Notes under the pieces: model-generated
What the model was told of the DNA's origin: nothing
Database searches by the model: none
The model's input: the letters and a program-made list of their open reading frames with translations, nothing else
Source of the DNA: Promethearchaeota archaeon
Lineage (GTDB): Archaea; Asgardarchaeota; Lokiarchaeia; Sigyniarchaeales; SOKP01
Direction of reading: 5' to 3'
Assembly: GCA_016840085.1 (NCBI GenBank)
Contig: JAEOTA010000018.1
Location: 62,001 to 126,000, forward strand
DNA length: 64,000 nucleotides
Shown: positions 15,280-15,873 of the stretch, piece by piece
How positions within the stretch are numbered: the stretch's first letter is position 1
Layout: each line of letters opens with the position of its first letter
Translations under genes and position numbers: made by a program

Positions 15280-15352
15280 AATCCCAAAACCTTTGCTAGG
15301 CAGTCTTCGAACGTCTCATTTTTTTACATGCGAATCATTCTTATTTGGGATT
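15280..15352 (-). promoter_or_regulatory. Candidate SECIS element in the 3'UTR of the redoxin selenoprotein gene
   Basis: Transcript-sense AATCCCAAA-TAAGA-ATGA-TTCGCATGT-AAAAAAATGAG-ACGTTCGAA-GA-...-TTTGGGATT: 9-bp outer stem, ATGA/GA quartet-like core, 9-position helix with one mismatch, A-rich apical loop. Confidence 0.65.
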
Positions 15353-15873
15353 TATTAAATATTTATCAATAATTTTAATCATCATTTCTATTGTAGGTCT
15401 ATCTGTCTTATCTTTACCAATATATTTCCAAATAATTTTACCATCTTTATTAATTAAGAACTTACTAGGCACAGCTTGTTTTATCTTATAATCTAAGCCC
15501 GCAACAGGGGCAAACCAGTATGCATCATATTGTTTAGCAATTTTAGCTCCACGATCGGAAATAATATCAACATTAAACTCGTTATCTTCTTTGAATTTTG
15601 TCAAAAGTCTAGCACTATCGCTTGCTATCGATATTAACTTAATCTTTCGCTTGTTAAATTCAGAAATATGTTCCGTTAATAGTTTTAAATGTGCTTTGCA
15701 ATGACTTCACCAATTTCCTCTAAAAAAGTCGATTAGTACACCATTAAACTTTTTGAGAAGGTCATTAAGATTTATAGGATTATCGTATATATTTACAGTA
15801 TCTATCAAGGGAGCTTTAGTCTCTATATCTAATCTTTAGGTCTTGGAGGTTCTTCAGCATTCATTTTACTCAT
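15341..15873 (-). CDS. Peroxiredoxin/redoxin-like selenoprotein: in-frame TGA (15707-15709) at the catalytic Cys position
   Basis: KAPLIDTVNIYDNPINLNDLLKKFNGVLIDFFRGNW[TGA]SHCKAHLKLLTEHISEFNKRKIKLISIASDSARLLTKFKEDN...; downstream half is track ORF 15341-15604; extreme N-terminus (MSKMNAEEPPRPK) is one nt out of frame. Confidence 0.8.

What the first reader, a model, noticed from the sequence alone, without database searches (positions are those of the whole stretch)
15341..15873. Redoxin-like selenoprotein: in-frame TGA at the catalytic cysteine (GNW-U-SHC)
Reading upstream of track ORF 15341-15604 in the same frame, coding continues through a single TGA (15709..15707): ...LKKFNGVLIDFFRGNW[TGA]SHCKAHLKLL.... 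The Prx/AhpC-type motif is normally FxRGxWCPxC, so the TGA sits exactly at the first (peroxidatic/CxxC) Cys. Sec replacing Cys in redoxins is well known, and selenoproteins have been reported in Lokiarchaeota. Automated callers truncate this gene to an 87-aa ORF from TTG.
Basis: partly seen in the sequence, partly recalled or inferred. Interest (0 to 1): 0.85.

Follow-up and report, generated by a model that had tools for sequence, protein, structure and literature searches.

The report
Asgard archaeal redoxin with selenocysteine
An ordinary-looking stop codon in this Asgard (Lokiarchaeia) gene is almost certainly read as the rare amino acid selenocysteine at the active site of a thioredoxin-fold redox enzyme; the family is already known, and standard gene finders cut the gene short.

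Summary
A TGA at 15709..15707 (- strand) interrupts an otherwise open AhpC/TSA (PF00578) redoxin frame at the first position of its UxxC motif (FFRGNW-U-SHC). The Sec reading is strongly supported. All close homologs in related genomes (48 UxxC, 20 UxxU loci read) carry TGA there, and no close Cys version turned up. A eukaryote-like SECIS overlaps and follows the stop codon (15352..15280), with heavy covariation over 56 homologs. The genome encodes SepSecS, EFSec, a PSTK-like kinase, two TGA-containing SelD and a tRNASec, which carries two apparent introns. TGA is an ordinary stop elsewhere. The conserved start (MNxEEPPRPxGL) lies in another frame because this contig has a 1-nt deletion near 15836; whether that is an assembly error or a real lesion is open. 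And the Sec aligns with the Thr/Ser of a peroxiredoxin TxxC motif (first Cys of ResA-type CxxC), not with the peroxidatic Cys. The family is already published as the Asgard 'Prx-like' selenoprotein. Possibly new: a third conserved hairpin in the SECIS, a D-arm intron in tRNASec, and small membrane proteins with TGA plus SECIS.

The parts
15341..15834 (-). Prx-like selenoprotein coding frame as assembled (read through TGA, ends TAA 15343-15341)
   Evidence: Open apart from TGA; PF00578 E 1.2e-21; conserved in synteny downstream of a Rab-like GTPase in six Lokiarchaeota contigs
15707..15709 (-). In-frame TGA read as Sec, first residue of the UxxC motif GNW-U-SHC
   Evidence: TGA at this codon in all close homologs read; no Cys at this position among the best 120 database homologs, only W (table-4 calls) or truncated proteins
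15835..15873 (-). Conserved N-terminus MSKMNAEEPPRPK in a different frame; one base missing relative to the family just before LDIETKAP
15280..15352 (-). SECIS element, eukaryote-like (ATGA_GA core, A-rich apical loop), overlapping the stop codon
   Evidence: Fold -17.4 kcal/mol, z -2.1; covariation over 56 homologs, 9 of 9 upper-stem pairs with double changes; covariance model hit 90.5 bits (this sequence was in the training set)
15335..15338 (-). SECIS core 5' side, ATGA
   Evidence: G and A of the core invariant over 56 sequences; coordinates
15304..15305 (-). SECIS core 3' side, GA (followed by an invariant C)
15289..15301 (-). Extra conserved hairpin GCCU-AGCAA-AGGU (P3) between the SECIS core and the lower stem
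   Evidence: 91% of cells paired, 2 of 4 pairs with double changes; also present in VhuD/VhuU SECIS

Best explanation
This is a selenoprotein gene of the Asgard 'Prx-like' thiol:disulfide oxidoreductase family. Shown by sequence: a thioredoxin-fold AhpC/TSA protein whose UxxC redox motif begins with a UGA codon conserved across relatives, and a eukaryote-like SECIS in the 3' UTR. Inferred: during translation the SECIS recruits EFSec with Sec-tRNASec (made by SerRS, PSTK, SepSecS and selenophosphate from SelD), so the ribosome inserts Sec at UGA. The Sec selenol at the N-terminus of helix 1 then attacks a peroxide or disulfide, the Cys three residues on resolves it as a selenenylsulfide, and a cellular thiol system re-reduces it. 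Whether the substrate is a peroxide or a protein disulfide is not decided. The 1-nt deletion at the 5' end is most simply a consensus error or a recent lesion of this one sequence, not part of the mechanism.
For: TGA at the same codon in all close homologs over several genera (48 UxxC, 20 UxxU). No close Cys homolog in a 5.8-billion-protein search: of the best 120, 38 carry W at the site from table-4 calling and 82 are truncated. SECIS with strong covariation and seven SECIS hits in the own genome at E<1e-5, three behind VhuD-like genes with two TGAs each and one behind VhuU. Machinery: SepSecS TIGR03531 487 bits; EFSec with aSelB_III domain; PSTK TIGR03574 E 2e-40; SelD x2 with in-frame TGA; tRNASec next to SepSecS. 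TGA ends 4 of 47 long window ORFs, so no global reassignment. Model pLDDT 91.6, Sec just before helix 40-51, best PDB fold Bcp4 TM 0.86. Published: Prx-like is one of five widespread Asgard selenoprotein families (PMC11227280).
Against: One base is missing near the start codon, so this assembled copy could be a decayed or miscalled allele; neighbouring genes show no such break, so a locally bad assembly is not obvious. PSTK and EFSec score below the curated NCBIfam cut-offs. tRNASec is interrupted twice. No expression or protein evidence.
Confidence: 0.93

Rival explanations
1. This copy is a pseudogene: a Sec redoxin that has lost its start frame by a 1-nt deletion, so the UGA is no longer reached in the frame of the conserved start.
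For: The conserved N-terminus is out of frame by one base; neighbouring genes are intact.
Against: No other lesion in 160 codons, with motif, TDRP region and SECIS intact; metagenome assemblies carry single-base errors; a TTG at about 15808 could start translation downstream of the break.
Confidence: 0.12
2. TGA is a sense codon (e.g. Trp, code 4) in this organism, so no Sec is involved.
For: Public databases hold 38 homologs translated with W at this site.
Against: TGA is the ordinary stop of 4 of 47 long ORFs in the window; UGA codons stand in the known Sec genes SelD, VhuD and VhuU; SECIS and Sec machinery are present.
Confidence: 0.01
3. Sequencing error or nonsense mutation of a Cys codon (TGC/TGT to TGA).
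For: None beyond the general possibility.
Against: The same TGA in some 65 homologs from independent assemblies.
Confidence: 0.005
4. On function, not on recoding: it works as a true peroxidase (selenoperoxiredoxin) rather than as a thiol:disulfide oxidoreductase.
For: Closest solved folds are PrxQ/Bcp peroxiredoxins; the downstream Cys aligns with the peroxidatic Cys.
Against: The W-U-x-x-C motif matches the Trx/ResA CxxC, the Sec sits at PrxQ's Ser/Thr position, and ResA is also a strong match.
Confidence: 0.4

Closest known systems
Asgard Prx-like selenoprotein (prxL; PMC11227280, after Mariotti 2016)
   Same: Phylum, Prx-like fold, UGA at the active site, type I eukaryote-like SECIS with AUGA_GA core in the 3' UTR, Sec machinery
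   Different: Nothing essential; this copy has a 1-nt 5' deletion, and a third SECIS hairpin is seen that the main text of that paper does not mention
Prx-like thiol:disulfide oxidoreductase, PF00578, UxxC/UxxU (reviews PMC9312934, PMC13188914)
   Same: Domain and UxxC/UxxU motif, 1-2 Sec
   Different: Bacterial members use the bacterial SECIS and SelA pathway (own knowledge)
NF040769 SelL-related redox protein
   Same: Best NCBIfam match, E 7.5e-14
   Different: 51.7 bits, far below the curated cut-off of 120
PrxQ/Bcp peroxiredoxins (2cx3, 3hjp)
   Same: Fold, TM 0.74-0.86
   Different: Cys at the second motif position, Ser/Thr where Sec stands here

Membership tests
Asgard Prx-like selenoprotein | AhpC/TSA (PF00578) domain | tested here: met
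   77.4 bits vs gathering 26
Asgard Prx-like selenoprotein | TGA aligned with the TGA/Sec of homologs | tested here: met
Asgard Prx-like selenoprotein | eSECIS-like structure (GA_[G/A]A core, upper stem 7-15 bp with at most 2 mismatches, apical loop 8-20 nt) in the 3' UTR | tested here: met
   Upper stem of 9 positions (8 standard pairs, one C-U mismatch in this copy), loop 11, core ATGA_GA; model limits
Asgard Prx-like selenoprotein | Complete archaeal/eukaryotic Sec pathway in the genome | tested here: met
   SepSecS, EFSec, PSTK-like, SelD, tRNASec; PSTK and EFSec are below curated NCBIfam cut-offs
Asgard Prx-like selenoprotein | Intact reading frame from the conserved start codon | tested here: not met
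   One base missing near 15836 in this contig; intact in relatives. This bears on whether this copy is functional, not on the family assignment
Asgard Prx-like selenoprotein | Sec present in the protein | not testable with these tools
   Needs 75Se labelling or mass spectrometry
Peroxiredoxin (classical) | Peroxidatic Cys/Sec in TxxC, Thr/Ser three residues before it | tested here: not met
   Sec occupies the Thr/Ser position; the Cys three later aligns with the peroxidatic Cys

The most novel reading that the evidence does not exclude
Lokiarchaeial SECIS elements are three-way junctions: besides the eukaryote-like SECIS arm they carry a second conserved hairpin (ACCUNGCNAGGU) that may be a binding or positioning site for EFSec or the ribosome in archaea lacking SBP2, and they also serve an undescribed family of small membrane selenoproteins.
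Probability: 0.3. Interest if true: 0.65.

Novelty: new member of a known kind. Interest (0 to 1): 0.35.

Why it matters
[quoted passage not shown] The 56-sequence SECIS alignment gives a concrete target: how archaea with eukaryote-like SECIS but, by the literature, no SBP2 direct Sec insertion, and whether the extra hairpin takes part.

Tried and rejected
Rfam SECIS_1 (RF00031) found nothing, but nothing in the controls either, so uninformative. RF01852 tRNA-Sec gave only tRNA-Gly and tRNA-Ser in the own genome; the real gene was found with a relative's DNA, the two insertions having hidden it. An Rfam scan of the locus gave only chance matches. A programmed -1 frameshift at CCT AAA GAT was considered and rejected: no slippery heptamer, and relatives simply have one more base. 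RNAalifold on the plain MAFFT alignment returns only the upper stem, because the lower stem varies in register. Mariotti 2016 is not held, so what it drew in the SECIS internal loop is unknown to me.

Full report
OBSERVATION. On the - strand the sequence reads ...GTACTAATCGACTTTTTTAGAGGAAATTGG-TGA-AGTCATTGCAAAGCA..., giving LIDFFRGNW-U-SHCKAHL with the TGA at 15709-15707 and the frame open to TAA at 15343-15341. The caller-type ORF is 15341-15604, 87 aa from TTG. Relatives have one continuous frame MNxEEPPRPxGLxxxxKAP, so this contig lacks one base just 5' of LDIETKAP. The genes around it (9-22 kb) that match the syntenic Lokiarchaeota contigs align essentially full length in one frame and show no such break, so I cannot tell an assembly error from a real lesion.

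WHAT IT IS. The read-through protein is AhpC/TSA PF00578 (E 1.2e-21) and Redoxin PF08534. AlphaFold2 on an alignment of 14 homologs gives pLDDT 91.6, pTM 0.87, with residue 39 (the Sec, modelled as Cys) just before helix 40-51; the closest solved folds are Sulfolobus Bcp4 (TM 0.86), Aeropyrum PrxQ and, further down, ResA. In the pairwise alignments Sec falls on the Ser of PrxQ SPVC and on the first Cys of ResA WCKPC, while the downstream Cys falls on PrxQ's peroxidatic Cys. So the Sec is the first residue of a Trx-like CxxC, not the classical peroxidatic residue.

CONSERVATION. In a six-frame search of 232 genomes of the phylum, all homologs down to E about 1e-17 that include the motif carry a TGA. 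Reading 68 loci that showed a TGA gave 48 UxxC and 20 UxxU (the more distant loci were picked for having TGA, so the count is unbiased only for the close ones). Some genomes have a UxxC-UxxU tandem (L022, L026, L028). A protein search gave 38 proteins with W at the site and 82 truncated ones among the best 120, none with Cys: the W are most simply table-4 gene calls. Named records are Candidatus Lokiarchaeota, and the gene sits downstream of the same Rab-like GTPase in all six contigs checked.

SECIS. Aligned 3' ends of 56 homologs show [AG]ATGA - 9-nt stem - A-rich loop - 9-nt stem - GAC. All nine upper-stem pairs have changes on both sides that keep pairing, 90% of cells paired; the whole structure has covariation score 0.509 against 0.278 in shuffles and 0.07-0.16 when slid. 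A lower stem joins the last codons and stop (AAUCCCAAA in the window) to UUUUGGGAUU. A further hairpin, ACCUNGCNAGGU, lies between the core and the lower stem; its evidence is thinner (91% paired, 5 double-change cells, 2 of 4 pairs), but it also pairs in the SECIS of VhuD, VhuU and small membrane genes (one search uses an alignment fitted to the model and so leans to it). The window copy alone is predicted to fold with the lower stem, the P3 hairpin and a variant of the upper stem.

MACHINERY IN THE SAME GENOME. SepSecS (TIGR03531, 487 bits), EFSec (TIGR00475 236 bits, just under the cut-off of 242, plus archaeal SelB domain III), PSTK-like kinase (TIGR03574, 139 bits, cut-off 290), and two SelD genes with an in-frame TGA, one read as LFGU. 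tRNASec was missed by RF01852, but nine sister genomes have it, and with that sequence the own gene is found about 0.3 kb upstream of SepSecS, interrupted after position 17 (34 nt, D arm) and in the T loop (about 30 nt); removing both leaves an intact tRNASec. A T-arm intron is on record for Lokiarchaeota tRNASec (PMC5330540), and unusual insertions in some Lokiarchaeia are mentioned in PMC9723677. The SECIS model finds six more elements in the genome at E<1e-5, behind VhuD-like genes (two TGA each), VhuU and two small membrane ORFs. TGA remains an ordinary stop (4 of 47 long window ORFs).

LITERATURE. Huang et al. 2024 (PMC11227280) list Prx-like as one of five widespread Asgard selenoprotein families, in 43.2% of Sec-using Asgard genomes, mainly with type I eSECIS-like structures. 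Reviews list Prx-like PF00578 with UxxC and UxxU. PMC9723677 reports a Prx selenoprotein shared with Lokiarchaeia. Hence a new member of a known kind.

MECHANISM. Shown: TGA conservation, SECIS, machinery, predicted fold. Inferred: Sec insertion, the Sec39-Cys42 selenenylsulfide cycle and the substrate. The main doubt concerns this copy only, because of the missing base.

Noticed in passing
G000:C32:24374-24530 (L002 about 823-978): tRNASec gene split by two insertions, 34 nt in the D arm and about 30 nt in the T loop, about 0.3 kb upstream of SepSecS; the joined sequence is an intact tRNASec. The D-arm one is not mentioned in the papers I could read.
   Followed up: partly
L124 (G000:C82:24200-24433), L086 (SECIS G000:C85:105692), L125, L126: Short single-TM proteins with an in-frame TGA (TQUPSAC, SSUACV, VUPGAI; L086 CKIU beside a CcdA-like gene), followed by SECIS elements scoring 46-60 bits. 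Not among the seven Asgard selenoprotein families of PMC11227280; a candidate new family.
   Followed up: partly
L085, L087, L089, L088: VhuD-like selenoproteins with two TGAs each and a VhuU peptide in the same genome, with SECIS of the same three-helix type.
   Followed up: partly
L062 (G158:C10): A UxxU paralog with a third TGA (SULLIDFF) at a site that is Gly in relatives: extra Sec or an error.
   Followed up: no
Public protein databases: Homologs of this gene are systematically mistranslated with Trp (table 4) or truncated after the TGA.
   Followed up: yes
window 12260-12523: Highly charged low-complexity K/E-repeat ORF on the - strand.
   Followed up: no
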